Of a stretch of DNA of 64,000 bases, positions 17,330 through 54,400 are shown piece by piece; the stretch's first letter is position 1; each line of letters begins with the position of its first letter. Source of the stretch: Asterias amurensis (Eukaryota; Echinodermata; Asteroidea; Forcipulatida; Asteriidae). Below the pieces are notes generated by a model. It made no database searches. It saw nothing but the letters and a program-made list of their open reading frames with translations, and was not told the origin of the DNA. Where the stretch lies: contig NC_092648.1 of NCBI RefSeq assembly GCF_032118995.1, positions 23,650,059 through 23,714,058 on the forward strand, given 5' to 3'. Both the position numbers and the translations under genes were made by a program.

Positions 17330-18515
17330 ATAGTGGTCTCGGGATTGGCACGAACTGGAGAACTGGAGTAGTATGCACAATGTCCTTGGGATCAGCACTG
17401 CAGAATTTGTCAGACGCTTATATGTACAATGCCCTTGGGATCAGCACTGCAGAATTTGTCGGAGTAGTATGCACAATGTCCTTGGGATCGACACTGGAGA
17501 ATTTGTCAGAGACGTATACTGTATCACAATGTCCTTGGGATCGGCCCTTGAGAAGTTGTCAGAGTAGTATGCACAATGTCCTTGGGATTGGCACTGCAGA
17601 ATTTGTCAGAGTAGTATGCACAATGTCCTTGGGATCGGCCCTTGAGAAGTTGTCAGAGAAGTGTGCACAATGTCCTTGGATTGGCACTGCAGAATCTGTC
17701 GGAGTATATGCACAATGTCCTTGGGATCAGCACTGCAGAATCTGTCGGAGTAGTATGCACAATGTCCTTGGGATCGGCACTAGAGAATTTGTCAGAGACG
17801 TATACTGTATGCACAATGTCCTATGGGATTGGCCCTTATGAGAATTTGTCAGAGTAGTATGCACAATGTCCTTGGGATTGGCACTGCAGAATTTGTCAGA
17901 CGCGTATATGCACAATGTCCTTGGGATCAGCACTGCAGAATCTGTCGGAGTATAAGTATGTCCAATGTCCTTGGGATCGGCACTGGAGAATTTGTCAGAG
18001 ACGTATACTGTATGTACAATGTCCTATGGGATCGGCCCTTGAGAAGTTGTCAGAGTAGTATGCACAATGTCCTTTGGATTGGAACTGCAGAATTTTTTAG
18101 AGTGTCCTTGGGAATTGCATTGGAGAATTTGTCAGAGTAGTATGCACAATGTCTTTGGGATCGGCACTGGAGAAATTGTCTGAGTATGCACAATGTCCTT
18201 TGGATCGGTCCTGGCGAATGTCAGATTAGTACGCACAATGTCCTTCGGATCAGCACTGCAGAATCTGTCAGACTCAGAGTAGTATGCACAATGTCCTTGG
18301 GACCGGCCCTGGAGAATTTGTCAGAGTAGTATGCACAATGCCTTTGGGATTGGCACTGGAGAATTTGTCAGTGTAGTATGCACAATGTCTTTGGGATAAG
18401 TACTGCAGATTGTGTCAGATACGTATGCACAACGTCCTTCGGATTGGCACTGCAGACTTTGTCAGAGTAGTACGCACCATGTCCTTTGAATTGAACTGCA
18501 GAATTTGTCAGAGTA
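17330..18515 (+). repeat. 47-bp minisatellite, about 25 diverged copies
   Basis: Unit: agtagtatgcacaatgtcct plus tgggatcggcactggagaat plus ttgtcag, with 45-55 bp variants carrying an acgtatactgt insert. The long + frames through it (MHNVLGIGTAEFVR repeats) are a product of the repeat and shift phase repeatedly, so no protein is called. Confidence 0.9.
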
Positions 18516-18622
18516 GGCCTAGAATCTATACTAGCTCTCTAGATCTTGGCATCAGCAATCAGCATCTGTACCCAGTTCTTTTGTTGTAGAAACGGTGATC
18601 GCTTACAACATCAATGACCCAC

Positions 18623-33700: not shown

Positions 33701-34704
33701 AAACCCACTGAAATGTAAGACAGAAAATCTCTGTCTGTGACTCCGCAGGACGAACAAAAGCAAAAATGGAAAAGACAGACACCAAATGATTTTTTTGCAA
33801 AAAGGCAGTAAAATCAGCGAAGAAAGGGGTGAAAACGCATAACAAAATTGGGCTGTGTGGGCCTGCCACAATTTAACAAACACATTATTCGATGGACCAG
33901 TCTTGGTCAAATTTGGAGAAACAAAAAGTTGCTCACGGAACAGAGTTAAGACTACTTGGTATTGGTGGTTGGTGCAATCATTATACCTGGGGTTGTTTAA
34001 CTTTTTGATTTCCAAATTGGAATTGTTTTGGCTCTTAAAAATAGTATTCTATTTGCCGAGTGGTGTAGGGCAATTTGTTCAAGATTGTAGATTGATTGTT
34101 TGACATTTGGAAAACGCCTTTGGACAACCCATGTCAAATTGAGGTTAAAAGTTTAGGAGTCAATGGATAGTTTTCTATTTGACATAACAAAAAAAAAGTT
34201 GTGAGGCTTGTCAGTAATTTCAAATTTAATTTTTAATATTATAGCACTTTGCACTGTATGCTATGGGTGTTTATTTAGTGGTGCACCCTTAATAGTAGAA
34301 AACGAATATGTACATCCAGACCCAATTTCATAGAACCTGTAAGCACATAAACTTGCTAAGTACAGAAAAGTCTTACTTAAAACACAAACAAACAGGTTAC
34401 CGGCCAAAACTACATTGAGTTTACATTGTTGTGACTGGTGCCTCACCCAATTTTTAAGCATTATGTTCTGCTTAACAGCTTCATGAAATTGGGCCCTGCT
34501 GTCTTGAAGGATTTAAAAGCCTGACAGACATTTTAACAATATTTCTATCTTGATTTTCAGTTACTGAGATCTGAGGATGTCCACGTCATGGTCGCCCCAG
34601 GGACCTATGCTGTGACTGCCGGCGCTTGGGGTACATCTCAACAACAGACGCATGTGGTCCATGTCAACCAGGGGCAAAGTGTGGATCTCGATTTTGTTCT
34701 CTAG
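30712..34704 (+). CDS. AKIP1: AKIP1 (A-kinase-interacting protein 1) ortholog, 5 coding exons
   Basis: Coding exons: 30712-30717, 32022-32144, 32746-32826, 33446-33550 and 34561-34704 (stop TAG 34702-34704). All junctions are GT-AG and all introns are phase 0, giving 152 aa. Exon 1 carries only two ATG codons before the donor gtaagg. Seen: exon 2 has the LCRTGRQGLDVLQRAQQRKV helix, which matches the LxRSxRxxLEVLERAKRR region of vertebrate AKIP1. Exon 3 has a DDAFSSILQYMSTTTRQC segment and exon 4 starts RYYRSAPP, matching the FxxMxxYTSSQCxKYYSSVP region. Exon 5 ends with APGTYAVTAG, THVV and GQSVDLDF, nearly the vertebrate C-terminus. Known of the family: AKIP1 binds the PKA catalytic subunit and NF-kB p65 and affects nuclear retention and signalling. 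The human protein is about 210 aa, so this one is shorter in the middle. Identity is confident; the minimal exon 1 is inferred. Confidence 0.88.
31127..31476. mobile_element. Palindromic MITE in AKIP1 intron 1
   Basis: ggagggttacgaagcatgct and tgtaaagggcgaaatggtct on the left are mirrored by agaccatttcgccctttaca and actaaccctccgataacgcc on the right. A C-rich run breaks the left arm; the arms are about 120 bp. Confidence 0.8.
32920..33300. mobile_element. TTAA-type MITE in AKIP1 intron 3
   Basis: ttaa precedes aggcaatggacactattggt; the right end tagtgtccactgcct is followed by ttac. Full length, about 381 bp, 93 bases after the exon 3 donor. Confidence 0.88.
34317..34498. mobile_element. Palindromic MITE, GGGCCCAATT family, in AKIP1 intron 4
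   Basis: cagacccaatttcatagaac ... cttcatgaaattgggccctg, ending about 60 bases before the AKIP1 last-exon acceptor. Confidence 0.8.
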
Positions 34705-35425
34705 CAATAGACGTTCCTGTTGTTTTTTGTAAAGTAACTTTAAAGAGGGACTCCATGATCAAATAAGGTTTTGTGATCCACTCATTTTTCAATAGGTAGG
34801 GTTATTACGAAAGTTGAATAGCACCTACAAATTCTTCTTTGGATTGTACGTTTAAATTTTTTGCTATGGTAACGAGTTTAGAAACTTGTAATTTTTCCCC
34901 ACTTTCATGAGGACTCTAGCTATTTAAAATTGAGTGCATCAAACAAAATTTATTTTGACATTAAAGCCCACTCTTTAAAAAAATCTGGGAAATCTGAGCC
35001 GTTAGTTTTATTCCTTACATGAAGAAGAGTTGATTGGATTTTGCGTGAGAGTTGGATCTGATTCAATGTGGATTAATGCAGAACATGGTGCTCAATTTAT
35101 GCCCGCTACGTTCAAAAGGCAATGACCCAAAAGGCAATGACATTACACTTTCTGGTGCAACTGAGAGTGTTTACACCAGGCTCACGCCTTATTTTATATG
35201 CTTTGAACTGAAGGTGATTCTTAATTTAAACCATTTGGAAACCTTTGGGCACTTTAGGTGGTAGCAGACTCAGGTTACAGTAAATCAATGGTTAACTTTG
35301 TTAACAAAAGCGATTTATACTTGGTAAAGTTGCTCCCATTTCTACCTGGCGAATGTTTTTTCCTTCTATTTAAATCATGTATTGGTTGGAATATATACCT
35401 TACCTTCAATGGGATTTGGGTCCTG

Positions 35426-35693
35426 AAGTGGGACTTCCATAAGTGGGACTTCCATAAGTGGGACTTCCATAAGTGGGACTTCCATAAGTCACTTAAAGTG
35501 GGACTTCAATAAGTGGGACTTCCATAAGTGGGACTTCCATAAGTGGGACTTCCATAAGTGGGACTTCCATAAGTGGGACTACCATAAGTGGGACTTATAT
35601 AAGTGGGACTTCCATAGTGGGACTTCCATAAGTGGGACTTCCATACAAAGTGGGCAAGCCATACGTGAGACTTCCATAAGTGGGACTTCTATG
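35426..35693 (+). repeat. 15-bp minisatellite (aagtgggacttccat)n
   Basis: About 17 units with point variants (ttatat, tctatg) and one 12-base gap. It lies 0.7 kb beyond the AKIP1 stop codon, upstream of candidate poly(A) signals, so it is probably in the 3' UTR. Confidence 0.92.
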
Positions 35694-35871
35694 AACTCAT
35701 TTTCAACGCACTACTGAAATTTTAATCATGCTTTAACTAAGGATGCATTGAGGGTTTTACTTTAAAAATATGAGATCATGTCTGATTTGTACATTTTTCT
35801 TGAAGTGCTGCTCTTGTAAATATCAGTTGGTATTAACTATTATTCAAGTTTTTCCGTTATGGTTTTCTGTA

Positions 35872-35897
35872 AATAAAGTGTCTTTTTAACAATAAAA
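35872..35897 (+). terminator. Candidate AKIP1 polyadenylation signals
   Basis: Two AATAAA hexamers (35,872 and 35,891) lie about 1.2 kb after the AKIP1 stop codon. If used, the 3' UTR includes the 15-bp minisatellite at 35,426-35,693. No closer convincing signal was noticed. Confidence 0.4.
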
Positions 35898-36044
35898 ATC
35901 ATGACTGTGATCTTTACCTTTGTGTCAGTATAGGGTGCCCCTTTGTGTTTAATTTATTTTAGACAATGGACTTTTGTAACTTGGTGTCCTGCAACTCTGC
36001 AAATTATCTTTATGCAATCTAGACAGTTCAGGCAGTCATCATAA

Positions 36045-36250
36045 TCACCTTTCGGCCTTCGTCCTTGGACGACATTGTAGAAGCAGCTTTGATGAAGTTT
36101 TGCCAGGTTGCTCTATCCTTCATGAGTTGTTGGGCCTCGTTTAGATTGAGATTTATGTCTTTAGTGATGGTGTCTCTGTACATGTAGCTTATTTTCCTCC
36201 TGCCGCGATTTGGATGTCCGCTAGAAGGATTCCAGAAGATCAGGTGTGAT
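36045..36250 (-). mobile_element. Non-LTR retrotransposon C-terminal fragment
   Basis: The - strand translation reads HLIFWNPSSGHPNRGRRKIS and continues YRDTITKDI...LMKDRATWQNFI, the W-P-x-G-x-R...G+R...M-x-DR-x-W pattern found at the C-terminus of many LINE polymerases. It lies about 150 bases past the candidate AKIP1 poly(A) signals. Confidence 0.6.
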
Positions 36251-36514
36251 ATTGGATTATCAGCCTATCGCAAGCAGGCATTCATATTGGTTGAAAGGTG
36301 CCCGAATTTAGAGCATTGGTAGCGAGCTGATATAAATCAGTTTGTATGCACAACCTGATGTGAGCGTTGCAGCCAGCTGGCAGGACTTGCGATGATCATG
36401 AGAGCAAAAATTGAAGGACAATTTCAAGTAAAATTTTACACTTATTGTTATGCTTCTCAACACTCGCTGCCAAAACATAGGATGGAACTCATGCCTCAAG
36501 CTACTGGGCAATCT

Positions 36515-36592
36515 CGGTGGTCTAGTTGGTAAGACACTGCTCCAGAATTGCTAGATTTAAGAGTCGTGTGGGTTCGAATCCCACCCCAGTAA
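36515..36592 (+). repeat. tRNA-like sequence (SINE head)
   Basis: ggtggtctagttggtaagac ... gtgggttcgaatcccacccc: A and B boxes in tRNA order, with poor acceptor pairing. Similar to the copy at 47.9 kb. Confidence 0.5.
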
Positions 36593-36599
36593 TATGCCT

Positions 36600-37130
36600 G
36601 TGATATTATTTCGAAGGACTTTTGACAAGTTAGCCACGTGTTCATCTTTCTTTGGGCCTGGTGTCAGATGCAATTGTGTCCGCCATGCAATATTGTCCGC
36701 GCTCCGGACAATTTGGCATATGCAATCGTGTCCGGGGTTACGCAAAAAACGTGTCTGGGGTTATGCAAAAAATCCGGCGGACATGTTCATGACTGTACAT
36801 GTATGTGCGCGCGTAAGCGAGTGGCATGCACTGAACCAACCTACATAATATGCAGCATGAATATTCACGTATTTTATGATTGCAGCGAATACCCAACGGC
36901 CGAACGGTTCCCATGTCATTCATGACATGCACTTATACTTAGCTTGTAAAAAAGGGCGAACGTGTTCCGTCGACCAAGGGCGTTTAATTTACTCCAAGGA
37001 CCGTTTTGCACGGGGGCGGACACAACTGCATATGCAGCAGCGTCTGGGCGGACACATTTGCATAAAAATATGCAAAACGGTCCGGCAGGCATTTTGCACA
37101 TGCAATAGGTCATAATTGCATGCGACACTA
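36600..37130. repeat. Cluster of inverted CpG-rich motifs (tgcaattgtgtccgcc type)
   Basis: The left half repeats variants of atgcaattgtgtccgcc and gcaatcgtgtccgg (36,668-36,780). The right half carries the reverse complements (gggcggacacaactgcatat, gcggacacatttgcat; 37,012-37,095). The middle (36,790-36,960) is unrelated. It may be a small transposon with subterminal repeats, or a binding-site cluster. Confidence 0.45.
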
Positions 37131-37214
37131 TTTACCACTAAAAAAGGTTGCAGCTGTTTACCATAGAAAAGCAATTGGCAAATATTTTACTGCTTCTAAA
37201 ATTGCCCCATATTT

Positions 37215-37312
37215 CGAGGTGGACGTCCTCGAATCTCGAAAAAGTTTCCAGAAGCCCCAGGGGAAACTTTCTACCCACTTTTCGCAAAAACGAGGGGTGT
37301 GACGTCACTTAG
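37215..37312. repeat. Two short hairpins and a CRE site outside the foldback element
   Basis: ttcgagg...cctcgaa (about 37,213-37,233) and aaagtttcc...ggaaacttt (about 37,241-37,270) can form hairpins, followed by a perfect CRE, tgacgtca (about 37,300). This lies just outside the left end of the foldback element. Confidence 0.4.
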
Positions 37313-37689
37313 TCGGGTGATTAATGTTTGTACCCAGTCTTCTTTCCAATTCGTAGGCAACGTGTAACGTGCACTGTACGTGCACATCATGTACACGAAT
37401 GGCCTGTACACTCGGTAGATGTTAGTTTCCAAACGCCAGGAGTCGATCGCTACTCGAAAGGATCCGATGTAATCGGTAGTCGTTAAACGGGGCAGCAATA
37501 CATAGACTCGCTACCATTCCTTGAGCTTTGTTTGTGTATTTTTGTATGGTAGCTACACCGATGTTTTGGAGTTTCGCTCTTAAGTTGAGACATTTGTTTT
37601 ATTTATTTTTATTCACAACCATTAACATACAAAGGGGTCATGTATTGCTGATTTTTAAAGTATATTCCAGATTTTTTAAATAAACAACA

Positions 37690-40600
37690 AAGCAATGTGT
37701 AGCCACAGAATACAAACTCTTCATCAACTAAAAGATGATTTGTTAAAAACTGTTTATCAATACGGTATCTTTCAGATTAAGCCAATCAAAGACTGCCATT
37801 CCCTATACAAAGGATTCCTGTAGCATTACTGATTTTATCGTATTTTTATAAAACTCCATTACATGTATTTCAAATTTAAAAAAATTTAAGACCACGAGTC
37901 TGCTATACGAACAGTTTACGATTTCATCAACGCCACGGGTCGATTTGTAAAACGGTTTATCAACATGTTATCATTTAAACGAAGTCAATCCAAGACTGCC
38001 ATTACCTATACAAAGCATTCATGTAGCATTACTGATTTTATCATAAGTTTATAAAGCTCCGTTATATTTATTTCAGATTTATGAAAATTACACACCACGA
38101 GTCCCTTTGCAGCATACTTTGTATGTGTACTACACTGCTGTGCGCACAGTTTAAGATTTCATCAACGCCACGGGTCGATTTGTAAAACAGTTTATCAACA
38201 CGTTATCATTCAAACGAAGCCAATCAAAGACAGTCAGTACCTAAACAAAGCATTCATGTAGCACTGCTGATTTTATCACAATTTAATAAAGCTCCATTAT
38301 ATTTATTTCAGATTTTTGAAAATTAAAGACCACGCGAGTCCCTTTGCAGCTTAGGCTACTGTGCGTGTGTATTCAACACCGCTGTGCGCACAGTTTAAGA
38401 TTTCATCAACGCCACGGGTCGATTTGTAAAACGGTTTATCAATACGGTATCATTCAAATTAGACCAATCAAAGACTGTCATTACCTAAACAAAACATTCA
38501 TGTAGCATTACTGATTTTATCATATTTTTATAATGCTCCGTTATATTTATTTCAGATTTTTGAAAATTACACACCACGAGTTCATTTGCAGCATACGGTG
38601 CACATGTACTACACTGCTGTGCGTACATTTTACAATTTCATCAACGCCACGGGTCGATTTGTAAAACAGTTTATCAACACGTTATCATTCAAACTAGTCC
38701 AATCAAAGACTGTCATTACCTAAACAAAGGATTCATGTAGCATTACTGATTTTATCATAATTTTATAAAGCTTCGTTCTATTTATTTCAGATTTTTGAAA
38801 ATTACACACCACGAGTTCATTTGCAGCATACGGTGCACATGTACTACACTGCTGTGCGTACATTTTACAATTTCATCAACGCCACGGGTCGATTTGTAAA
38901 ACAGTTTATCAACACGTTATCATTCAAACGAAGCCAATCAAAGACAGTCAGTACCTAAACAAAGCATTCATGTAGCACTGCTGATTTTATCACAATTTAA
39001 TAAAGCTCCATTATATTTATTTCAGATTTTTGAAAATTAAAGACCACGCGAGTCCCTTTGCAGCTTAGGCTACTGTGCGTGTGTATTCAACACCGCTGTG
39101 CGCACAGTTTAAGATTTCATCAACGCCACGGGTCGATTTGTAAAACGGTTTATCAATACGGTATCATTCAAATTAGACCAATCAAAGACTGTCATTACCT
39201 AAACAAAACATTCATGTAGCATTACTGATTTTATCATATTTTTATAATGCTCCGTTATATTTATTTCAGATTTTTGAAAATTACACACCACGAGTTCATT
39301 TGCAGCATACGGTGCACATGTACTACACTGCTGTGCGTACATTTTACAATTTCATCAACGCCACGGGTCGATTTGTAAAACAGTTTATCAACACGTTATC
39401 ATTCAAACTAGTCCAATCAAAGACTGTCATTACCTAAACAAAGGATTCATGTAGCATTACTGATTTTATCATAATTTTATAAAGCTTCGTTCTATTTATT
39501 TCAGATTTTTGAAAATTACACACCACGAGTTCATTTGCAGCATACGGTGCACATGTACTACACTGCTGTGCGTACATTTTACAATTTCATCAACGCCACG
39601 GGTCGATTTGTAAAACAGTTTATCAACACGTTATCATTCAAACGAAGCCAATCAAAGACAGTCAGTACCTAAACAAAGCATTCATGTAGCACTGCTGATT
39701 TTATCACAATTTAATAAAGCTCCATTATATTTATTTCAGATTTTTGAAAATTAAAGACCACGCGAGTCCCTTTGCAGCTTAGGCTACTGTGCGTGTGTAT
39801 TCAACACCGCTGTGCGCACAGTTTAAGATTTCATCAACGCCACGGGTCGATTTGTAAAACGGTTTATCAATACGGTATCATTCAAATTAGACCAATCAAA
39901 GACTGTCATTACCTAAACAAAACATTCATGTAGCATTACTGATTTTATCATATTTTTATAATGCTCCGTTATATTTATTTCAGATTTTTGAAAATTACAC
40001 ACCACGAGTTCATTTGCAGCATACGGTGCACATGTACTACACTGCTGTGCGTACATTTTACAATTTCATCAACGCCACGGGTCGATTTGTAAAACAGTTT
40101 ATCAACACGTTATCATTCAAACTAGTCCAATCAAAGACTGTCATTACCTAAACAAAGGATTCATGTAGCATTACTGATTTTATCATAATTTTATAAAGCT
40201 TCGTTCTATTTATTTCAGATTTTTGAAAATTACACACCACGAGTTCATTTGCAGCATACGGTGCACATGTACTACACTGCTGTGCGTACATTTTACAATT
40301 TCATCAACGCCACGGGTCGATTTGTAAAACAGTTTATCAACACGTTATCATTCAAACTAGTCCAATCAAAGACTGTAATTACCTAAACAAAGCATTCATG
40401 TAGCACTGCTGATTTTATCATAAGTTTAATAAAGCTTCATTATATTTATTTCAGATTTTTGAAAATTAAAGACCACGCGAGTCCCTTTGCAGCTTAGGCT
40501 ACTGTGCGTGTGTATTCAACACCGCTGTGCGCACAGTTTAAGATTTCATCAACGCCACGGGTCGATTTGTAAAACGGTTTATCAATACGGTATCATTCAA

Positions 40601-40905
40601 ATTAGACCAATCAAAGACTGTCATTACCTAAACAAAACATTCATGTAGCATTACTGATTTTATCATAATTTTATAAAGCTCCATTATATTTATTTCAGTT
40701 CTTTTTTAAATTAAAGACCACGAGTCCCTTTGCAGCACACTGTGCGTGTGTACAACACTGCTATCGTACAGTTTAAGATTTCATCAACGCCACGGGTCGT
40801 ATTGTAAAACGGTTTATCAATACGTTAACAAAGGATTTATGTAGCATTACTTATTTTATCCCATTTGTATAATGCTCCATTCTGTTTATTTCTGATTTTT
40901 GAATA
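37690..40905 (+). repeat. Left satellite arm: 235/244-bp monomers, 714-bp higher-order repeat
   Basis: The landmark catcaacgccacgggtcgat occurs at 37925, 38160, 38404, 38639, 38874, 39118, 39353, 39588, 39832, 40067, 40302, 40547 and 40782. Spacings are 235, 244, 235, 235, 244, 235, 235, 244, 235, 235, 245, 235. From 38404 to about 40546 the 244+235+235 trimer recurs with period 714-715 and looks nearly identical by eye. The outer copies (37.7-38.4 kb) and the last (40.7-40.9 kb) are more diverged. Monomers contain the palindrome ctgtgcgcacag. Confidence 0.9.
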
Positions 40906-42934
<2,029 letters not shown>

Positions 42935-45350
42935 GGGTCCTTTTGATAAAAAGTTTTACAAATCGACCCGTGGCGTCGTAAACTGTAAACTGTACACACA
43001 GCAGTGTTGAATACACGCACAGTATGCTGCAAAGGGACTCGTGGTCTGTAGTTTTAAAAAATCTGAAATAAATATAATGGATCTTTATAAAATTATGATA
43101 AAATCAGTAATGCTACATGAATGCTTTGTTTAGGTAATGACAGTCTTGGACTGGCTTCGTTTGATCGATAACGTATTGATAAACCGTTTTACAAATCGAC
43201 CCGTGGCGTTGATGAAATTGTTAACTGTGCGCACAGCAGCGGTGTAAACAGGCAAACTAGGCTGCAAAGGGACTCGTGGTGTGTACTTTTCAAAAATCTA
43301 AAATAAACAGAACGGAACTTTATAAAATTATGATAAAATCAGTAATGCTACATGAATGCTTTGTTTAGGTAATGACAGTCTATGAATGGTCTAATTTGAA
43401 TTATACCGTATTGATAAACCGTTTTACAAATCGACCCGTGGCGTTGATGAAATCGTTGACTGTACGCACAGCAGTGATGTACACCATAAAGTATGCTGCA
43501 AAGGGACGCGTGATTTGTAATTTTCAAAAATCTTAAATAAATATAATGAAACTTAATAAAAATATGATAGAATCAGGAATGCTACATGAATCCTTTGTTT
43601 AGGGAATGGCAGTCTTTGATTGGTTTAATTTGAATGATACCATATAGATACACAGTTTTACAAATCGACCCGTGGCGTTGATGAAATTGTAAACTGTACG
43701 CACAGCAGTGTAGTACACACGCACAGTATGCTGCAAAGGGACTCGTGGAATGTAATTTTCAAAAATCTGAAACAAATATAATGGAGAATTTTAAAATTAT
43801 GATAAAATCAGTAATGCTACATGAATGCTTTGTTTAGGTAATGACAGTCTTTGATTGGTCTAATTTGAATTATACCGTATTGATAAACCGATTTACATAT
43901 CGACCCGTGGCGTTGATGAAATCTTAAACTGTACGCACAGCGGTGTAATACACGCGCACAGTATGCTGCAAAGGGACTCGTGGTGTGTAATTTTCAGAAA
44001 TCTGAAATAAATATAACGGAGCTTTATAAAATAATAATAAAATCAGTAAGGCTACATGAATGCTTTGTTTAGGTAATGACAGTCTTTGATTGGTCTAATT
44101 TGAATGATAACGTATTGATAAACTGTTTTACAAATCGACCCGTGGCGTTGATGAAATCTTAAACTGTGCGCACAGCGGTGTTGAATACACACGCACAGTA
44201 GCCTAAGCTGCAAAGGGACTCGCGTGGTCTTTAATTTTCAAAAATCTGAAATAAATATAATGGAGCTTTATTAAATTGTGATAAAATCAGCAGTGCTACA
44301 TGAATGATTTGTTTAGGTACTGACTGTCTTTGATTGGCTTCGTTTGAATGATAACGTGTTGATAAACTGTTTTACAAATCGACCCGTGGCGTTGATGAAA
44401 TCTTAAACTGTGCGCACAGCAGTGTAGTACACATACAAAGTATGCTGCAAAGGGACTCGTGGTGTGTAATTTTCAAAAATCTGAAATAAATATAACGGAG
44501 CTTTATAAAATTATGATAAAATCAGTAATGCTACATGAATCCTTTGTTTAGGGAATGGCAGTCTTTGATTGGTCTAATTTGAATTATACCGTATTGATAA
44601 ACCGATTTACATATCGCCCGTGGCGTTGATGACATCTTAAACTGTGCGCACAGCAGTGCAGTACACGCGCACAGTATGCTGCAAAGGGACTCGTGGTGTG
44701 TAATTTTCAAAAACCTGAAACAAATATAATGGAGCTTTATAAAATTATGATAAAATCAGTAATGCTACATGAATGCTTTGTTTAGGTAGTGACAGTCTTC
44801 GACTGGCTTCGTTTGAATAACGTGTTGATAAACTGTTTTACAAATCGACCCGTGGCGTTGATGAAATCTTAAACTGTGCGCACAGCAGTGTAATACACGC
44901 GCACAGTATGCTGCAAAGGGACTCGTGGTGTGTAATTTTCAGAAATCTGAAATAAATATAACGGAGCTTTATAAAATAATAATAAAATCAGTAAGGCTAC
45001 ATGAATGCTTTGTTCAGGTAATGACAGTCTTTGATTGGTCTAATTTGAATGATAACGTATTGATAAACCGTTTTACAAATCGACCCGTGGCGTTGATGAA
45101 ATCTTAAACTGTGCGCACAGCGGTGAACGTTGTTTACACACGCACAGTAGCCTACGCTGCAAAGGGACTCGCGTGGTCTTTAATTTTTAAAAATCTCAAA
45201 TAAATACAATGGAGCTTTATCAAACTATGATAAAATGAATTCTTAAACTGTACGCACGGCAAAGTGACTTGCCACAGTATATGAAGCATTTTAGGGGGAC
45301 TCTCGGTCTTAATTATTAAAATCAGCAGAACTAGATGAATCTCTTGTGTA
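42935..45350 (-). repeat. Right satellite arm: same monomer, opposite orientation, more diverged
   Basis: The landmark gttttacaaatcgacccgtg begins at about 42953, 43186, 43421, 43655, 43890, 44125, 44369, 44604, 44835 and 45070; spacing is 231-235, with one 244. Neighbouring copies differ more than in the left arm and no clean trimer period is seen. The monomer decays beyond 45,235 into degenerate pieces up to about 45,350. Confidence 0.9.
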
Positions 45351-45539
45351 CTGAAAGGGAATGGACCAGTCTTTGATTGGCCTTAACTTAATTGATAACG
45401 TACGTTTGTGTTGAGAAGTTTTGCAACGTGGAGAGTGATACGTATGTACCCCTGCAGTGGGTCCCATCCACTCGCAACACGAGAAATGCTGCACGGACTT
45501 GGTCAAGTCTAAAAGCGTTCTTAACAGTGTGGTTATTTC

Positions 45540-45743
45540 GGATCCTTTTCACGTGTAACGATCGACTCCTGGCGTTTGGAAACTAACATCTACCTGTACA
45601 CTCGACTGCTACGGACATGTGCATGTTGTGTACGTTGTGTACAAACTACAACAAGCTGACAAGCACTTCGGTCTGCAGAGAGCAAGAATCAAGCCGGTTT
45701 GTTTTGCACATTAAAGGAGATTTTATGCACTGATATATCGACG
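45540..45743 (+). promoter_or_regulatory. Inferred 5' UTR / promoter-proximal region of ZC3H14, overlapping the end of the foldback element
   Basis: The ZC3H14 ATG is at 45744 and no splice acceptor is evident just upstream, so transcription probably starts within a few hundred bases. The outer inverted sequence of the foldback element reaches at least 45,596 and perhaps about 45,640. Core promoter and element end therefore overlap or abut. No clear TATA box is seen. Confidence 0.35.
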
Positions 45744-48449
45744 ATGGATATCGGTAGCAGTGAAATGAGTCAAAAGATAAGGGTGAGAAAATATTACCGG
45801 AACGGCAAAGAGAAAGATGGTTAATTAATACTATTTTTGCCAACTCGTCTGGCTCTATCTATGCTGTTAGTATTTAAATGCTGGGACATGCAATCCTAGC
45901 AGCCTTGGCCACAAGATTCGGATATGGGGACCAACACTATATCTAGTCTTTATAGAGATGTACTAACATTGCAAAGTCTAAACTGAGTCTGGATAACTTT
46001 CCGTAAGAAAAAAGGGATATCTCATTGTTGAGTCATTGCCATTGGGACATTGAGGAGGTAAATTAAATACTACTATTAAAAAAGTATTATATCATATCGA
46101 ATGAAAAAGTGGTGGCGTCATACAGAAACTGTTCCAGTTCTAGGAGTAGACCCAAGACGGATGGCAAATCCAATTGATTGAGATGTTCCTGTGTCATGGT
46201 AAATAAAAAGGAAAGGTTTCCGTTTATATTGTGCCACCACTTTTTTATTCGGCATGAATAGTATCTAATTAACCTCAATGAGAATGAGATGTCCTTTTTT
46301 GTTAAATAAGTGAAAAAGTGGTGGCGCCATACGGAAAGTTATCCCTTTCCCAACAGAAATTTGTTGAAAAACATATTTTTTGAGAAAATTTAATTATTTT
46401 TGAGCCGCCAGTGTGCATTAGTTCAAATTGATAAATCAACTTGCTTGAAAACTTTACTTGTCAAAAGTCAGGTCCACTCGAAACCTTACAACAACATTCA
46501 ACAATCATGACAATCATACGACTACAATCAACTGCTTCAATCTACTAATGTCATACTCAAAGACCAGAGTGATTGACTCAGTGCGCTCATTTATCTCTTC
46601 AGTAGATGGGCATGAGATGCGCACCTTGATTTACTCAGCATGCCAGTTAGAACAAAGGTTACGTTGTGAAATTATGTGGTGCGCATTTCACGTCTGTCTA
46701 GGCAAATGAATTACTAGCTGGTTGAAGCGTCGGACTATACTGTAATATAGTATAAACTACTGTTTGTTTTGTCGTCTTACATTGTCTTAATGGCACAATC
46801 TTTGACGGGTTTTCATAACAATAATAACAAATTCTTACAAAGCGCATTTCAAAATAACCATATGATATCAATGCGCTCTACATTATTGGGCCTATAGCAT
46901 CCCTTTAAAGGAACACATTGCCTTGGATCGGTCGAGTTGGTCTTTGAAAAGTGTATGTAATCGTTTGTTATAGAATGCATATGATTAGAAAGATATTTTA
47001 AAAATAGAATATAATGATCCACACAAGTATCACTTGAAATTGCGTGGTTTTCCTTTTACCTCGTCAACAAACACGGTCGGCCATTTATGGGAGTCAAAAT
47101 TTTACTTTTTAAACATCTTTCTAACCATATGCATTTTATAACAAACGGTTACAAACACTTTTCAAAGACCAACTCGAGCGATCCAAGGCAATGTGTTCCT
47201 TTAATCTTTCTCAGCCCCCTGTGGGTATTCAGCCCCGAGCTGCGGTGGCGTTCCTAAGGCCTTTTCATACACAAATCAACCTCTATCCTCACAGGTACCC
47301 ATTTATACCCCTGGGTGAAGAGAATCAACTATAGTCAAGTATCTTGCTCAAGGACACAAGTGCCACGACCGGGATTCGAACCCACACTTTGGTGACTTAA
47401 CCACTATATAACCTGAATTTGGTGCTCTTTTAAAACCACTCAGCCATGACACTCTACCTTTTTAAAAGGTTGAAAGTTTTGTGTTGTTGTACTTGTACAT
47501 GTAGTTCACACAAAGTCAGTGACCAATTATATCACATTGCTTAAATACTGAGTATCTACTAACTAGAGAAACTGAAAATGAGGATTAAAATACATGTAGA
47601 CGAAAATCTGTTCAGTTTAAGGGAGTTGCTCTGGAAGTGCTTTGAATGTCAAAATAAAACTAGTGTATTTTTTCATTTATTTCAGTCTGCAATAAAGGCC
47701 AAGCTTGTTGATCTAGGATCTTATGTGGGTAAGTTTAAATACAAAGTTTGCAGATAATGTGTGCATCAAATCAGACTCTAACCACTTGGTTTGACCCTTA
47801 CACTGATGTCTGTGAAGCAGTGTAGACGCGGTACCTTCCCGAGTTCTGTGAACATAAATGCACAGGCATATTATTGGAGTGGGATTCGAACCCACAACAA
47901 TTTGCCGTTCTAGGGCAAATGTTTTACCAACTAGACCATTGCCCGATACCTAAAGGCAGTTCGAATCCTACATTTTAGGAATGGGTACCGCAAAACTCTT
48001 TTGTTAAATTTCCGTTGGGATAACAAGCCTGGAAAACCACGCAGGCAATGGCCTCCGTTACCCCCCGTCTTTGGAGCCCCTTCAAAAGTTTCCCATTGAC
48101 TTTAAGATTTTCCGATGGAAGTGCCCTGTACAAAATGAAAATGGTCTAGCCCTTTCGAAGATGAAATTCCAGGTCTAGGATAAAGAATATTGTATTTGGT
48201 ATTACATGTACCCTTACACCGATGTAGCTAAACTGTAAGTTGTTCTGTGAGGTTTGTCCAAAAAAGTCTAAAAACTGAGTGAACGGACTTGAGGCACTGA
48301 ACTAAAACCTGTAATATGATTGATTTTTCTCCAGACGATGAACTACCAGATTATATCATGGTGATGGTTGCTAACAAGAAAACAGAGGCCCAGATGACGG
48401 ATGACTTGTCCCTGTTTCTTGGGAACAATACATTGATTTTCACGTCCTG
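45744..48449 (+). CDS. ZC3H14: ZC3H14 exons 1-3: PWI-like N-terminal domain
   Basis: Start ATG 45744-45746 opens MDIGSSEMSQKIR (human begins MEIGTEISRKIR). Exon 2 reads SAIKAKLVDLGSYV and exon 3 supplies DDELPDYIMVMVANKK and DLSLFLGNN. The exon 2/3 junction is phase 1 and exon 3/4 is phase 2, splitting a Trp codon (TG|G) before LHTVLTKL. This strongly conserved part fixes the start codon. In the family this fold mediates protein contacts needed for nuclear RNA export and quality control. Confidence 0.92.
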
Positions 48450-51400
48450 GTAAGTTCCAACAAAGAGTACAGGGCCTAATTTCATGGCTCTGCTTTCCAT
48501 CGAACTCTGCAATAACAATCACCATTTTCCTGGGTGTAGAATGCCTAGTAGTGTGGAGTACACGCACACACAGACACATGACAAAATTTACCTCTAACCT
48601 ATGAAAGACGCTTCAAGTAAGCGCAGAATTCCCTGTTTCCGCAAGTGCCGATTCTTTGCTTAGGGTAAATATAGCCATGAAATTGGGCCCCAATCTTGAT
48701 GTGTTGACTGCCAGAGCTCTACAGATGACCAAATGAAAAACATTAATCCTTATTCCCTAGGCCTACAGATGACCTCAGTCTTTCCGATATCCTCCTCTCT
48801 TATGTCACTTCACACTAACATGTTTGGACTTAGATAATATTTGAATGCTCAACCCAGTGGAAAAGAACTGTTGCTTGTCCCTACAGCCATGACAGACCTT
48901 CTTCTGAATCCTTCATTTCGACATTTGGAAACTATTGACTAAATCAAATCATATCTTTGTGTCAGGTTGCACACTGTCCTCACTAAGCTCTCGCAGCCAG
49001 CTTCAGAACCAAAGCCAAAGAAAGTCAAGGAAAGCACCACCAAAACCAAAAAGATCAAAGAGAAGAAAGCAGCTGGAGCATCAGGAGCACATCAAAAGCA
49101 AACCAAGGTTATTGATCCACAGCCAAGTAAACCAGGGCATTCCGTTGAGACGACCATGATAATGCTCCCAACCGCACCGATGCCTTCATTTGCTGCTGCG
49201 AAAGGAGCTAAGCCGGAACCCACCCAAGTGGTCATCTCCTTGAAGCCAGAAACCAATGATTTCTTAGATGAAGAACTTGCTCAGGAAGAGGTGGACTCAG
49301 AGACGGCAAAGAGACAGTCTGCTGTAATTGCACCGCTCCAGCCCAAGGCATTGCCTCGTACATCGTCGCAACCAAAAGAAGTCATCAAGAAAGTGTCATC
49401 CCATCATCACTCGGCAACAAACAAAGTATCACCAACTCAGGTAATCTGTGTTGGAGCCACGGTGGGAGGTGCTGGGCAGGGCGCACCAAGGACTCACAAT
49501 TTTTTGTCCAGCACTCGGAGCAAAATACAATGTAACGCCCAGCACAATCCCCAGCCGTGACACTGTGTTCTTGAGCAAGACACTTAACCATTGCTTTGTC
49601 CTTCGGATGGGACGTAAAGCCGTTGGTCCCATGTGTTGTGTAACGCATGTAAAAGAACCCAGTGCACTTATCGAAAAGAGAAGGGGTTCGCCCCGGTGTT
49701 CCTGGTTGAGGCTGCTTAATGCGCCGTAGCACCTTGTAAACCCTTTTAAGGTGCTAAATAATTGGGTCTCAGAATTCATCACTGCAGTAACCTATCTTTC
49801 TGAAAGTTTGTATATACTCAGCGCCTTGAGTACCTTTTTGGTAAATACGTGCGCTATATAAGACTTTGATATTATTAATATTATTATTATTATTACAGTT
49901 TTCTCCTAGAATAAATAAAAATACTGTCCACTGTGCATTGATCTTAGACACAGCTAATGATAAGGAGTCTCAAATATCACATAGAAAGAACACAGCAAAA
50001 GGCCATTCAACTTATTGCAGGGCCCCATAACACAAACGGTTTGGGAAACCTGGCATAATGCCTGAAGCTTGCACTTTAAGAACAATGGTTGGGCCCAACG
50101 AGATATGGCCGTTATTATTAAATAAGGAAAAACCCAGGTGCAGTACATGTATGTTCACACTCATCAAATTTCACCCTTGTCTATGTTCATTCCTGACCAT
50201 GCTTTTTTCAATGTAGCATTTTAAAACTTTAATTTTATGTGCATTTTGCTGCAGACCTCACGAAAGCGCAAGGCACCCGGCTCTGTGATTGGTCAAGTTT
50301 TGAATGTCCAGGAGGATGAAGACAGTGATGAACCTTCTAGCTTTGGAAAGAAAGTGGCCAGCACTGTCCTTCCACAAAGAAGGTTTGCTAATTTTCCTCA
50401 TTCTATGAATTCTTACATTTTGCCACACTTGACCTGGGCCCAATTTCATGACTCTGCTTACCGTAAGCACAGAAACGGCGCTTACGGAAGCGGGGAATTC
50501 TGTGCTTATGGCAAGCGTATTTCACGGGTTAGTGGCAAATTTTGGCTTGTACGTGTGCGTACTCCACATTTCTAGGCATTCTACGCTTACAAGGCTAGCG
50601 CAGAAATTCAGCGCTAGCATGTCAAGCGGGGAATCGCACAAGCGCAGAATTCGGCAGTAAGCAGACCCATGGAATTGGGCCCTGAACAATAGATCCATCC
50701 CATGAAATATACTATTGACATTCACAGGGACCTTCTAAATTTATCTGTAGTCCTGTTTTGTATTTCTATTTTTCTGTGTGTGGCGTTTGTGTTCTGCCTA
50801 GATAAAAAAAACAAAAAAAAACTTACCACACTTCTCATCTCCTTTGTGTTGCAGACCAACACTCCCTATGGCCAAGCAGGCCAACACCTCCTTACTGAAG
50901 AAGGCTGTATGCGCTGCAGAAGCTTCTACTAGTCAAGTCCTCTCTACACTGACTAGGAAAGAACCGCCCAAAACCACACAGGCAGGACCAAGACGCATCA
51001 AGATTGTTAGGTAAAGCGATTTTCTCACTTTTGTAGAACTCAAAGGAAACTAACTTTTATGTGTGAAAGCAGTTTGATTTTTTTTTCTTGAATTGATTGT
51101 TGTGGAGTTTAAACCACTGACCTCTGTGTTTCGTTCACCAGTAGCTGTAGATGGTAGAGCAACGAAAAGATGCCACGTTTAAATCTTATGCTACCTAGGT
51201 TACCCCAAAACTGTTACTAAACATTTGTAGATAAAGCCATGTCTTCTAAGGACTTCCCCCTGATGCATCTTGGTAACATGTAGCTGTTAATGACACTGGG
51301 TACCTTTGGTTATTGTCAAAGACCAGTCATTTCACTGTGAGTATCTCAACATACGCATAAATTAACAAACCTGTGAAAGTTTGAGCTCAATTGTTCTTCA

Positions 51401-54400
51401 AAGTCGTGAGATAATAATGAAAGAAAAAACACCCTTGTCACACGAAGCTGTACTTGTGCTTTCAGATGCTTGATCCCGAGACCTAAAAATCCTCAAAATC
51501 TAATTCTGAGGTCTCAAAATCAAAGTTGTGGAAACTACGTTACTTCAGAGGGAGCTGCTACTCACAGTGTTTTATACTATCAACAGCTCACCAATACTCA
51601 TTACCAAGTAAGGTTTTTTGCTAATAACTATTTTGAGTAATTACCAATAGTGTCTTCTGCCTTTAATCAAGAAGGGTTTGAAGCCCCTCCCTCCCTTCTA
51701 AATGGCTGTAGCCAACTGTCATGTTTTGCCCTGGACTGTCTTAATGTTTAAGGGGAAGACAAAACCACCTAAATACCGAGAAGTTCCAATATGTAGGGGT
51801 GGAGCATACATTGATTTTACACTGAGCAAAAGCCCCCAACTAATAAACAGCAGTGAAAAAGACGATGCTGTTACCTGAGGGAACTATTCTTCAAGTCAGA
51901 GGTCTGGGTAAGCTGTTGCAGGCCTAAAAGAGACCAATCCCAGCTGTGCCCTTGCATGGGCAGCTAGACCCTTGAGTTCCCTGCCATTGGACGATCAGCT
52001 CTAACATGGTTTGTGTCCCTTTTTCAAAATGTCAATTGTTGGCAGGTATGTTGTATGATGTCACACATCAATGAAAGCCGCTTTCACCCCCCCCCCCCCC
52101 TCCCTCGATGACTTACTGGATCCATTTAGTCACTAAGAAGAAGAAATGACATTTCTATACAAAGTTAAAACACTATGCAAGTGTTTTAACTACGCAGACT
52201 ACGCAGACTACGCAGACTACGCAGAACGCCCTGGTAATACGCCTACATTTTGTGGTGACCCATGGAGCAATAGGTGACCACATGAAAAACACAATCATTT
52301 TGAAAATATGTGCATTTTTATAAGCGTTTGCCACACGCCCGACAAGTGCCCTAGGGTTTTATTAGCGCTGGAAAGTTGTTAACAAGTGTGCATGCAAAAC
52401 AGCCAATTAGCGTTGATTTTCTGTGTTCCCCTCCCTGGGGTTAGTGACAAGAGGTAACGATACGAGAGAGGTGCCCGCGGTAGGGAGGCTGCAGCACTGG
52501 CTGGGATATAAGCCCTTTGAGATAAGCTGGTGGACACTGACACTGTAAGGTTTGGGTAAATTTGTCTGTATCAAACAGAGAACTAATTATAGTGGTCCAC
52601 AGAACCCTCAAAAAAGGCTAATTGCCTCGTGTCCTGCTAACAACAAGGCTTTGCACTGTGGAACACACTTCCTTTGAGCTCTCTCAATTAAAATCCTTAG
52701 TTTGGGTTTATTTGTAACTGTTTAATAACTCTAAAGCCCCAATTATCCATAATCTGAACATATGGTCATCATTAAAACAGAAGTAAAACTGACTCCAAAG
52801 ATTAGGTGCTTTATCTGAACAAAAAATATCTTTCAGAAATCATACGACCACAGGCATTTTTGAGATGATTGGAAAACGGCCAAATTCAAGGGTTTCTGTA
52901 AGGGATATTCTGCTCTACTCCTGGAAGACCTTCAAAATTTTGGTGTTGATTGGGTCTAATTTGTAGCAAAAATAGCACAACAAAGCCAGTCGTCCCTTCA
53001 AGAAGATTATCGGTCACATGTACAGAACACGTGTTTCACACAATTCACGTACTTCGTGAAGTTCTATTTAGAGATATTTATTTACATGTCAGTTAATTAA
53101 GATGTGAGGTTTCCATTGAATTCTTAGGTGAACCATTAAAAGGATTCGGTTGTGGCTTTGTGTCCTCATTGTTGAGTCTAATCAAAAAATTAAATTGTTC
53201 GGGTCGAGTCTGAGTTACAAGTCGGAAAGATTGCAGTCGGAATCATGTGACACCTAAATTTAAAGATATTCTGGAAAAATAATAATGCAATAGAAAATCC
53301 TGACAGATATTTGTACAAAATTAGGTATAGGGATGAATGAAGAAGAAAACAAATGTATTGGGACCTACATGTTGGTCTCTTTGATTGTAGATGAGAGGTC
53401 CATTTTCCAAAACAAACTAATGTATTTCAAAGGCTTATTTGGTAACAAGCAATGGAGAGCTGTTGATAGTACAAAACAGTGTGAGAAACAGCTCCCTTTG
53501 AAGTAATGTAGGTTTTGATAAAGTAATTTTCCATTAATTATTTTTAATTTGATTTTGATTTTAAGGTCTCGAAATCAAGCATCTGAAAGCACACAACTTC
53601 TTGTGACAAGGGTGTTTCGTCTTCCATTATTATCTTGCAACTTAGACGACAAATTGAGTTTAAATTTTCTCAAGTTTTTTATTTTGTGTATTTGTTGCAG
53701 ATAAACCAAATGAGAAGACTGGTCTTTGACAATTACCAATAGTGTCCAGTGTCTTTAAGCAAAAAGAAACAATAATAAGTAGTTTAACCTTTCTGTGTCT
53801 TCTCGAGTCCCCTAATGGAGGCTGGTTGAAATGTCAATGAAACCCTGAAGCTCACAACTGCTTGAGAAGTTGTATCTAACTCTTCAGATTTCACTCTTCG
53901 ATTCTTTACAAACAAATTAATGTTTGAATAAACCTCGAGTCTGAGTCCCAACTCTGTTTTCTGGGCCCAATTTCATTGAGCTGCTTAGCACAAGAATTTG
54001 CTTAGCATGAAATTTTTTCCTTTATATTAACAGGGTTACCAACCAAATTTCCGTTTGTTGCATATTGCTTGTTACTGGTGTTCAGCTGTTTTTTTGTTTA
54101 TCCTGAAAATCATGTAAAAATTTGGTTGGTAATCCTGTTTTTATCAAGGAAGAAATTTCATGCTTAGCAAATTTTTGTGCTTAGCTGCTCTATGAAATTT
54201 GGCCCAGATGGCCGAGTCTTCTTCATTGATCGAGTTATCGATAATGTGGCTCAAGTTGGACTTGAGTTTGAGTCAAGAGTCAAACAAAACTGTGCTGATC
54301 AATTTCTTGAAGCAAAACTTTTTGTGACCGAATTTACAAAGAACTTATTTTACTCCTGGTTTTTGTCATTTCTGTTTTTCTTGTTGCACTTCTGAGTCAT

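What the first reader, a model, noticed from the sequence alone, without database searches (positions are those of the whole stretch)
37320..45660. Large foldback element with inverted satellite arms, about 8.3 kb
Two arrays of one 235/244-bp monomer (13 landmark copies left, 10 right) face each other across a 2-kb core, and the sequences outside the arrays are also inverted copies, with a perfect 36-base stretch. Inverted outer ends argue for one mobile unit, not two chance satellites. No coding capacity is seen, so mobility would need a partner in trans. Arms of satellite monomers this long are unusual; classic echinoderm foldback elements use units of about 15 bp. It could seed satellite DNA elsewhere in the genome.
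Basis: partly seen in the sequence, partly recalled or inferred. Interest (0 to 1): 0.88.

Follow-up and report, generated by a model that had tools for sequence, protein, structure and literature searches.

The report
Starfish foldback transposon with satellite arms
This is one copy of a jumping-DNA family in what appears to be a starfish genome: its two ends are long mirror-image arrays of a 235-base repeat, and it closely parallels an element called Tetris known from fruit flies.

Summary
The host assembly (491.5 Mb) holds at least 23 complete inverted pairs of these ends; 20 of 23 have an exact 9-bp duplication. Two copies at different sites are 99.94% identical over 7.1 kb, so the family moved recently. 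No coding capacity was found. Monomer types are specific to arm and position: prebuilt arrays travel with the element, change by block duplication, and exchange between arms only rarely. Most monomers carry a 14-of-16 match to the inner terminal repeat, in one of their most conserved stretches, as if monomers were extra transposase-binding sites (inferred). No element with these ends and a transposase was found. The listed monomer hits lie inside such elements; no free satellite was seen (capped list). Closest known: Tetris of Drosophila virilis. New member of a known kind; host inferred to be Asterias amurensis.

The parts
37405..37413 (.). Left copy of the 9-bp target-site duplication TGTACACTC
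   Evidence: Identical to 45595-45603
37414..37449 (+). Left terminal inverted repeat, 36 bp, GGTAGATG...
   Evidence: Perfect reverse complement of 45559-45594
37414..37927 (+). Left outer domain up to the first monomer landmark (514 bp; 529-531 bp in the other 19 copies read)
   Evidence: 98.2% to the family consensus. Similarity to right-arm monomers begins about 37737
37900..40827 (+). Left array: 13 landmark copies from 37928, at spacings 235,244,235,235,244,235,235,244,235,235,245,235
   Evidence: types E G F F G F F G F F G I from outside in
38156..40357 (+). 714-bp trimer higher-order repeat, perfect at shift 714 over a run of 1488 bp; this G-F-F pattern appears in this copy only among the 20 read
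40785..42978 (+). Core between the innermost monomer landmarks, 2194 bp, no coding capacity found
   Evidence: (97.8% to the core consensus)
41951..42236 (+). (TTTA)n tract in the core, expanded in this copy (272-bp perfect run; 20-48 bp in the 19 others)
42943..45236 (-). Right array, inverted: 9 landmark copies plus one hidden in a 466-bp step
44150..44400 (-). One left-type 244-bp monomer inside the right array: a tract of exchange between arms (approximate limits)
45096..45594 (-). Right outer domain, outside the outermost landmark (499 bp)
45559..45594 (-). Right terminal inverted repeat, 36 bp
45595..45603 (.). Right copy of the 9-bp target-site duplication TGTACACTC

Best explanation
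A non-autonomous cut-and-paste DNA transposon of the Foldback type, built like Tetris. Shown: it inserts as a whole unit, ends at GGTAGATG...CATCTACC, makes a 9-bp target duplication, and has spread to at least 23 complete copies, at least one pair of them recently. Shown: the arms are two arrays whose monomers are mostly specific to arm and position; they travel inside the element and differ in length by blocks of monomers. Inferred: a Mutator-type (MULE) transposase made elsewhere in the genome binds the terminal repeat and the TIR-like 16-mer present in most monomers, so the arrays act as clusters of extra binding sites, as shown for the tandem repeats of Galileo. Inferred: array length changes by unequal exchange or replication slippage, and the two inverted arms only rarely exchange a monomer. 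The confidence given is for the shown part; I put the MULE step near 0.75 and the binding-site step near 0.45.
For: 9-bp duplication in the window and exact in 20 of 23 complete pairs, one more with a single mismatch. 62 ends genome-wide within 3 mismatches of 24 nt, 0 for the reversed control pattern. Copies L010 and L022 99.94% identical over 7117 bp at different sites. Core 97.8-99.8% identical to the consensus in 20 of 20 copies read, element lengths 5661-9694 bp. Monomers: 359 in 36 types; 22 of the 25 largest types occur in one arm only. 281 of 359 have a nearest relative of 99% or more in another element, while same-arm monomers within an element average 89.4%. TIR/monomer motif 14 of 16, 0 of 300 shuffles as good; conservation rank 2 of 220 windows with each of two independent landmarks. 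Long MULE-domain frames occur in the same genome, and two such elements, L034 and L035, end in 16-bp tandem repeats with flanking direct repeats of 9 and 8 bp read by eye. Binding sites in TIR tandem repeats are shown for Galileo (PMC3688188 abstract).
Against: No element that has both these ends and a transposase was found, so the superfamily rests on duplication length and analogy. Two of 23 complete pairs have no duplication (L013, L024), and the 207-bp MITE of this family is flanked by an 11-bp direct repeat, not 9. In the diverged sibling L047 the TIR-like motif is not specially conserved (rank 152 of 220 with 2 monomers; rank 120 of 220 with 1 monomer and another landmark), which weakens the binding-site reading. 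Outer domains and core are about equally conserved (median pairwise 99.1, 99.1 and 98.8%), so there is no further sign of selection.
Confidence: 0.9

Rival explanations
1. Two chance satellite arrays, or an assembly-made or segmental inversion of one array, rather than a transposon.
For: The arrays dominate the locus and look like satellite DNA; no raw reads were examined.
Against: 23 complete inverted pairs on 13 contigs and 20 of 23 exact 9-bp flanking duplications; left and right outer domains and core differ from each other but are conserved among copies.
Confidence: 0.02
2. The arms are maintained by frequent copying between the two inverted arms (foldback gene conversion), which keeps them palindromic.
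For: The window's right arm carries one left-type monomer at about 44150-44400, and 6 of 192 right-arm monomers have their nearest relative among the left-arm monomers of other copies.
Against: 0 of 167 left-arm monomers are nearest to a right-arm one; left-right identity is the same within an element as between elements, 88.1%. 22 of the 25 largest monomer types are restricted to one arm.
Confidence: 0.07
3. It is moved by a transposase of another superfamily (for example a P-type enzyme, as for Galileo), not by a MULE.
For: No partner element was found, and foldback structure arises in more than one superfamily (PMC4079207 passage).
Against: 9-bp duplications are the MULE-type length in the sources read (PMC6446971 table; Tm1, PMC3169594), and long MULE-domain frames are present in this genome.
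Confidence: 0.15
4. The monomers are a functionless satellite that expanded inside a transposon, and the TIR-like motif is only a trace of their origin from the outer repeat. (This concerns the role of the arms and does not exclude the transposon itself.)
For: Tetris shows a similar shared stretch read as origin by duplication; the motif is not specially conserved in the L047 sibling.
Against: In the main family the motif is among the most conserved windows of the monomer (rank 1 to 2 of 220), and it is intact in 3 of 3 monomers of the C16 relative.
Confidence: 0.4

Closest known systems
Tetris of Drosophila virilis (PMC4079207; abstract, passages and section 19 read)
   Same: Long inverted arms with an outer domain and ~220-bp internal tandem repeats of variable number; non-coding middle; 8-10 bp duplications; no autonomous copy found; a short stretch shared between terminal domain and monomer (37 bp at ~80% there, 14 of 16 bases here); a related short MITE-like element.
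   Different: Only three structurally complete Tetris copies were reported, against 23 complete pairs here. Tetris arms also have an inner domain, which I did not look for here, and its middle varies in size, whereas the core here is 2058-2225 bp in 20 of 20 copies. Tetris repeats also form long satellite arrays; none were seen here in the listed hits. The host phylum differs. Sequence homology was not tested (no Tetris sequence was at hand).
Tm1, Mutator/Foldback family of root-knot nematodes (PMC3169594; passages read)
   Same: Composite inverted ends with tandem repeats and mostly 9-bp duplications; non-autonomous forms.
   Different: Tm1 units are 13-15 bp, and a transposase-coding Tm1 form is known.
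Galileo of Drosophila (PMC3688188; abstract read)
   Same: Long internally repetitive ends; tandem repeats carry further transposase-binding sites.
   Different: P superfamily with known transposase; a different target duplication length (recalled).
Rehavkus and Phantom-type MULEs (PMC6446971; passages read) and the MULEs L030, L034 and L041 of this genome
   Same: 9-bp duplications and a minisatellite near an end in Rehavkus; PHD finger in Rehavkus, in L041 (over the Pfam cut-off) and weakly, below the cut-off, in L030 and L034.
   Different: None of the 10 MULE loci examined shows the GGTAGATG ends, though most were read only as 3.3-kb loci; the array beside L042 has 238- and 487-bp periods but no detectable sequence relation.

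Membership tests
Foldback-type element | Long terminal inverted repeats made of internal tandem repeats | tested here: met
Foldback-type element | Moves as one unit with a target-site duplication | tested here: met
   20 of 23 complete pairs exact, 1 with one mismatch, 2 without
Tetris (as an anatomical class) | ~220-bp monomers in the arms, outer flanking domain, non-coding middle, 8-10 bp duplication | tested here: met
   235/244-bp monomers; left outer domain 529-531 bp in 19 of 20 copies (window 514), right 497-500 bp in 17 of 20 (L011 and L018 319, L027 595); longest core frame 112 aa without Pfam match; 9 bp
Tetris (as a sequence family) | Sequence homology to Tetris ends or TIR-220 | not tested
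Mutator superfamily (MULE) | Target duplication of about 9 bp (9-11 bp, partly recalled) | tested here: met
   9 bp in 20 of 23
Mutator superfamily (MULE) | MULE transposase in an element with the same ends | tested here: inconclusive
   12 MULE-domain places; 10 of 12 examined, none shows the ends (8 search loci of about 3.3 kb; flanks of two of them; L041 and L042); 2 of 12 not looked at
P superfamily (Galileo) | Galileo-type duplication length (7 bp, recalled) | tested here: not met
   9 bp in 20 of 23
Rehavkus | PHD-finger MULE transposase with a minisatellite before one end | tested here: not met
   No coding capacity found; arrays on both sides

The most novel reading that the evidence does not exclude
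The satellite arms are a selected part of the transposition machine: each monomer is a transposase-binding unit, kept by selection on its 16-bp TIR-like core, and the transposon disperses ready-made, position-ordered satellite arrays through a sea-star genome. Natural copies with graded monomer numbers (6-13 left and 6-22 right landmarks) would then be a dose series for testing why Foldback elements have long repetitive arms.
Probability: 0.35. Interest if true: 0.65.

Novelty: new member of a known kind. Interest (0 to 1): 0.5.

Why it matters
Tetris was reported with three complete copies. Here a comparable foldback family with ~235-bp arm monomers has at least 23 complete copies, 20 with exact target duplications, and the 20 read in full have near-identical cores but different arm lengths. 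That makes it possible to separate array evolution from transposition: monomers keep arm and position identity across copies, lengths differ by blocks, and arms rarely exchange. It also shows that this anatomy exists outside flies and points to a testable role for the monomers as transposase-binding sites.

Tried and rejected
Autonomous partner: 12 MULE-domain places were found, 10 of them examined. L034 and L035 are nearly identical MULEs (L034 scanned: MULE domain over cut-off, PHD and FLYWCH below cut-off) with 16-bp tandem-repeat ends and other termini. L041/L042 (MULE + Ulp1 + PHD in a 1045-aa frame) lie beside a 238/487-bp array, which looked promising, but one array monomer scores no better against ours than 200 shuffles of it (22.5 against mean 22.1, maximum 36.5), BLAST found no match to a copy of the element, and no inverted partner array appears in the 14 kb read. 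Unpaired ends were followed as possible partners: C16:15490785 is a decayed relative in repeat-rich DNA, read only in part; C2:23320306 is a diverged sibling with a very short core; C6:7511764 is a 207-bp MITE made of both ends; four ends with one shared flank are an element fragment inside another repeat, two of the four read further. The other unpaired ends were read only at the end itself or not at all.

Element-mediated rearrangement as the cause of the two copies without duplications (L013, L024) was checked by comparing unpaired flanks; no partner flank was found among those read. Coding remnants: all 5 core-consensus frames of 60 aa or more and 2 of the 4 right-domain ones were scanned against Pfam; none was over its cut-off. 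Rfam on 34000-49000: two tRNA-like hits, both outside the element. My first conservation ranking of the motif was biased because the same motif defined the monomers; it was repeated with two independent landmarks.

Full report
What is there. The window carries one transposon copy at 37414-45594 (8181 bp). It begins GGTAGATGTTAG and ends with the reverse complement; the outer 36 bases are perfectly inverted, and outside them lies the same 9 bp, TGTACACTC, on both sides. Inside are a left outer domain, a left array with 13 monomer landmarks, a core, a right array in inverted orientation with 9 landmarks plus one hidden in a 466-bp step, and a right outer domain. Random 9-mers from the window match in 12 of 200,000 draws.

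Host. The window lies at C1:23650059-23714058 of a 491,506,623-base assembly of 23 contigs. The published Asterias amurensis assembly is 491.53 Mb with 22 chromosomes of 13.43-38.00 Mb and scaffold N50 23.75 Mb (PMC10625585, passages read); here C1 is 38,009,675 and C9 23,750,475 bases. The identification is an inference from these numbers. That assembly used HiFi reads from ~15-kb fragments, longer than the element.

It is a mobile family. A search with the left 67 bases gave 40 scored matches of 65 candidates, 22 of them perfect over the full query, the window included. A search for the terminal 24 bases with up to 3 mismatches gave 32 forward and 30 reverse hits and 0 for the reversed control. 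Pairing them by hand gives 23 convergent pairs 5.7-10.7 kb long (46 ends, on 13 contigs) and 16 unpaired ends. Flanks were read for 23 of 23 pairs: 20 have an exact 9-bp duplication, one has one mismatch (L022) and two have none (L013, L024). Twenty copies, the window included, were read in full; the other three only in part. The twenty are 5661-9694 bp long; core identity to consensus is 97.8-99.8%, and median pairwise identities are 98.8% for the core and 99.1% for each outer domain. L010 and L022 differ at 2 aligned bases plus 2 gap positions over 7117 bp but sit at different sites with different flanking 9-mers. The family has therefore transposed recently.

No coding capacity found. The longest stop-to-stop frame of the core consensus is 112 aa and runs through the TTTA tract. 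Seven frames (5 of 5 core, 2 of 4 right-domain frames of 60 aa or more) gave no Pfam match over cut-off; Rfam gave nothing inside the element.

How the arrays behave. From the 20 copies, 359 monomers (167 left, 192 right; only steps of 200-260 bp were counted, so longer and shorter steps were dropped) fall into 36 types at 5% distance. Of the 25 largest types, 22 occur in one arm only. They recur in similar order: left roughly E G H J (M/P) F I, right A B N O A B C D L K, with copies that deviate. 281 of 359 have a relative of 99% or more in another element, whereas same-arm monomers within one element average 89.4% identity. So much of the order within the arrays is older than the dispersal of the copies and is carried along by it. 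Length differences look like block duplications: ABCD blocks in L013 and L028, and a G-F-F trimer in the window copy (perfect over a 1488-bp run at shift 714). Exchange between arms is rare: 6 of 192 right monomers and 0 of 167 left monomers have their nearest relative in the opposite arm of another copy. The window copy shows one such tract, a left-type 244-bp monomer at about 44150-44400. Its TTTA tract is also expanded, 272 bp against 20-48 in the 19 others.

A possible role for the monomers. The inner part of the terminal repeat, AACGCCAGGAGTCGAT, matches AACGCCACGGGTCGAT of the monomer at 14 of 16; none of 300 dinucleotide shuffles of the repeat reached that (best 13). The monomer motif is the most conserved 16-base window of 220 with the first landmark, which contains it, and second of 220, behind an overlapping window, with each of two independent landmarks (344 and 340 monomers). 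It is exact in 334 of 359 monomers. Against this, the diverged sibling L047 does not specially conserve it (rank 152 of 220 with 2 monomers, 120 of 220 with 1), while the C16 relative does in 3 of 3. Galileo's tandem repeats in the ends are reported to hold extra transposase-binding sites (PMC3688188, abstract), and Tetris shares a 37-bp stretch between end and monomer (PMC4079207 section 19). I infer the same here, but no binding was tested.

Relatives. A 207-bp MITE made of both ends lies at C6:7511764; its right end lacks 3 bases and it is flanked by an 11-bp direct repeat, CCCAATGTATT. A sibling 72-84% identical in the arms, 77-79% in the longest matches, with a core of about 160 bp, lies at C2:23320306 (only 3.5 kb read), and a decayed relative at C16:15490785. 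Four unpaired ends share the same upstream flank: an element fragment with about one monomer that has become part of another repeat (two of the four were read further).

Partner and satellite. The genome has 12 places with a MULE domain. L034 and L035 end in 16-bp tandem repeats; their flanks, read by eye, show direct repeats GACGCGCGC (9 bp, L034) and CCGCATTG (8 bp, L035). L029, L030 and L033 have a similar 16-bp tandem repeat in the stretch read. None of the 10 loci examined carries the GGTAGATG ends, so the partner is unknown. A monomer search gave 480 matches in 40 scored of 75 candidate regions; by coordinates, compared by hand, the rows listed lie within the 23 pairs or two further copies (C18:11.30 Mb, C8:8.24 Mb), and further rows were not listed. 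Free satellite was therefore not seen, but the search is a lower bound.

Comparison. In the features compared it parallels Tetris closely; Tetris lacks an identified autonomous copy too. The 9-bp duplication fits Mutator-type elements such as Tm1 (PMC3169594, passages) and the MULE table of PMC6446971 (passages). Searches of the paper library for Asterias with foldback gave 0 papers, and for foldback element, sea urchin and inverted repeats 1 paper, the Tetris one; broader searches listed 12, 20 and 12 papers, none titled for an echinoderm foldback element. The library covers open-licence papers only, and the 1983 sea-urchin foldback paper is known to me only from the Tetris reference list. 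The verdict is a new member of a known kind, with an unusually good natural series of copies.

Noticed in passing
L034 (about C9:13390387-13393686), L035, L030: MULE loci with long open frames of 630-658 aa (stop to stop; MULE domain over the Pfam cut-off in L030 and L034, PHD and FLYWCH or ZSWIM-like matches below it); L034 and L035 end in 16-bp tandem repeats (GTCACTTCGTACCCAA) and L030 has a similar one (GGACACTTCGTACCTT): short-unit foldback-type elements in the same genome.
   Followed up: partly
L041 and L042 (C15:2373700-2382700; C3:21145500-21154500): Two copies 99.5% identical over 5.8 kb with a 1045-aa frame joining MULE, Ulp1 protease and PHD domains (L041 scanned), beside a tandem array of similar monomer length (238-246 bp) but no detectable sequence relation; ends not found.
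   Followed up: partly
C15:10665297, C7:7871561, C16:6761954, C8:11455612 (L060-L063): Four unpaired ends with the same upstream flank; in the two read further an element fragment with about one monomer is followed by other tandem-repeat sequence (ATATATA-GGAGCAAAACC in the one printed), so another repeat family seems to have captured it.
   Followed up: partly
window 35426-35689: Array of about 18 copies of a 15-bp unit AAGTGGGACTTCCAT, 1.7 kb outside the element; no inverted partner cluster in the window.
   Followed up: partly
window 36511-36592 (+) and 47878-47939 (-): Two tRNA-like hits facing each other on either side of the element, probably SINE-type repeats; 79% identical in inverted orientation.
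   Followed up: no
window 46905-47204, 53960-54208, 9877-10005: Long imperfect palindromes (77, 75 and 71% self-complementary), possibly other foldback-like or MITE repeats.
   Followed up: no
window 17366-18516: About 24 copies of a 47-bp tandem repeat with 104- and 189-bp higher periods.
   Followed up: no
C16:15490714, 15522135 and 15522236 (L043, L044): Another, diverged use of the same ~25-bp end sequence followed by TACGGCATA(A/C)AG(G/T)CATAAAGG, in tandem on one side: perhaps a second family with related ends.
   Followed up: partly
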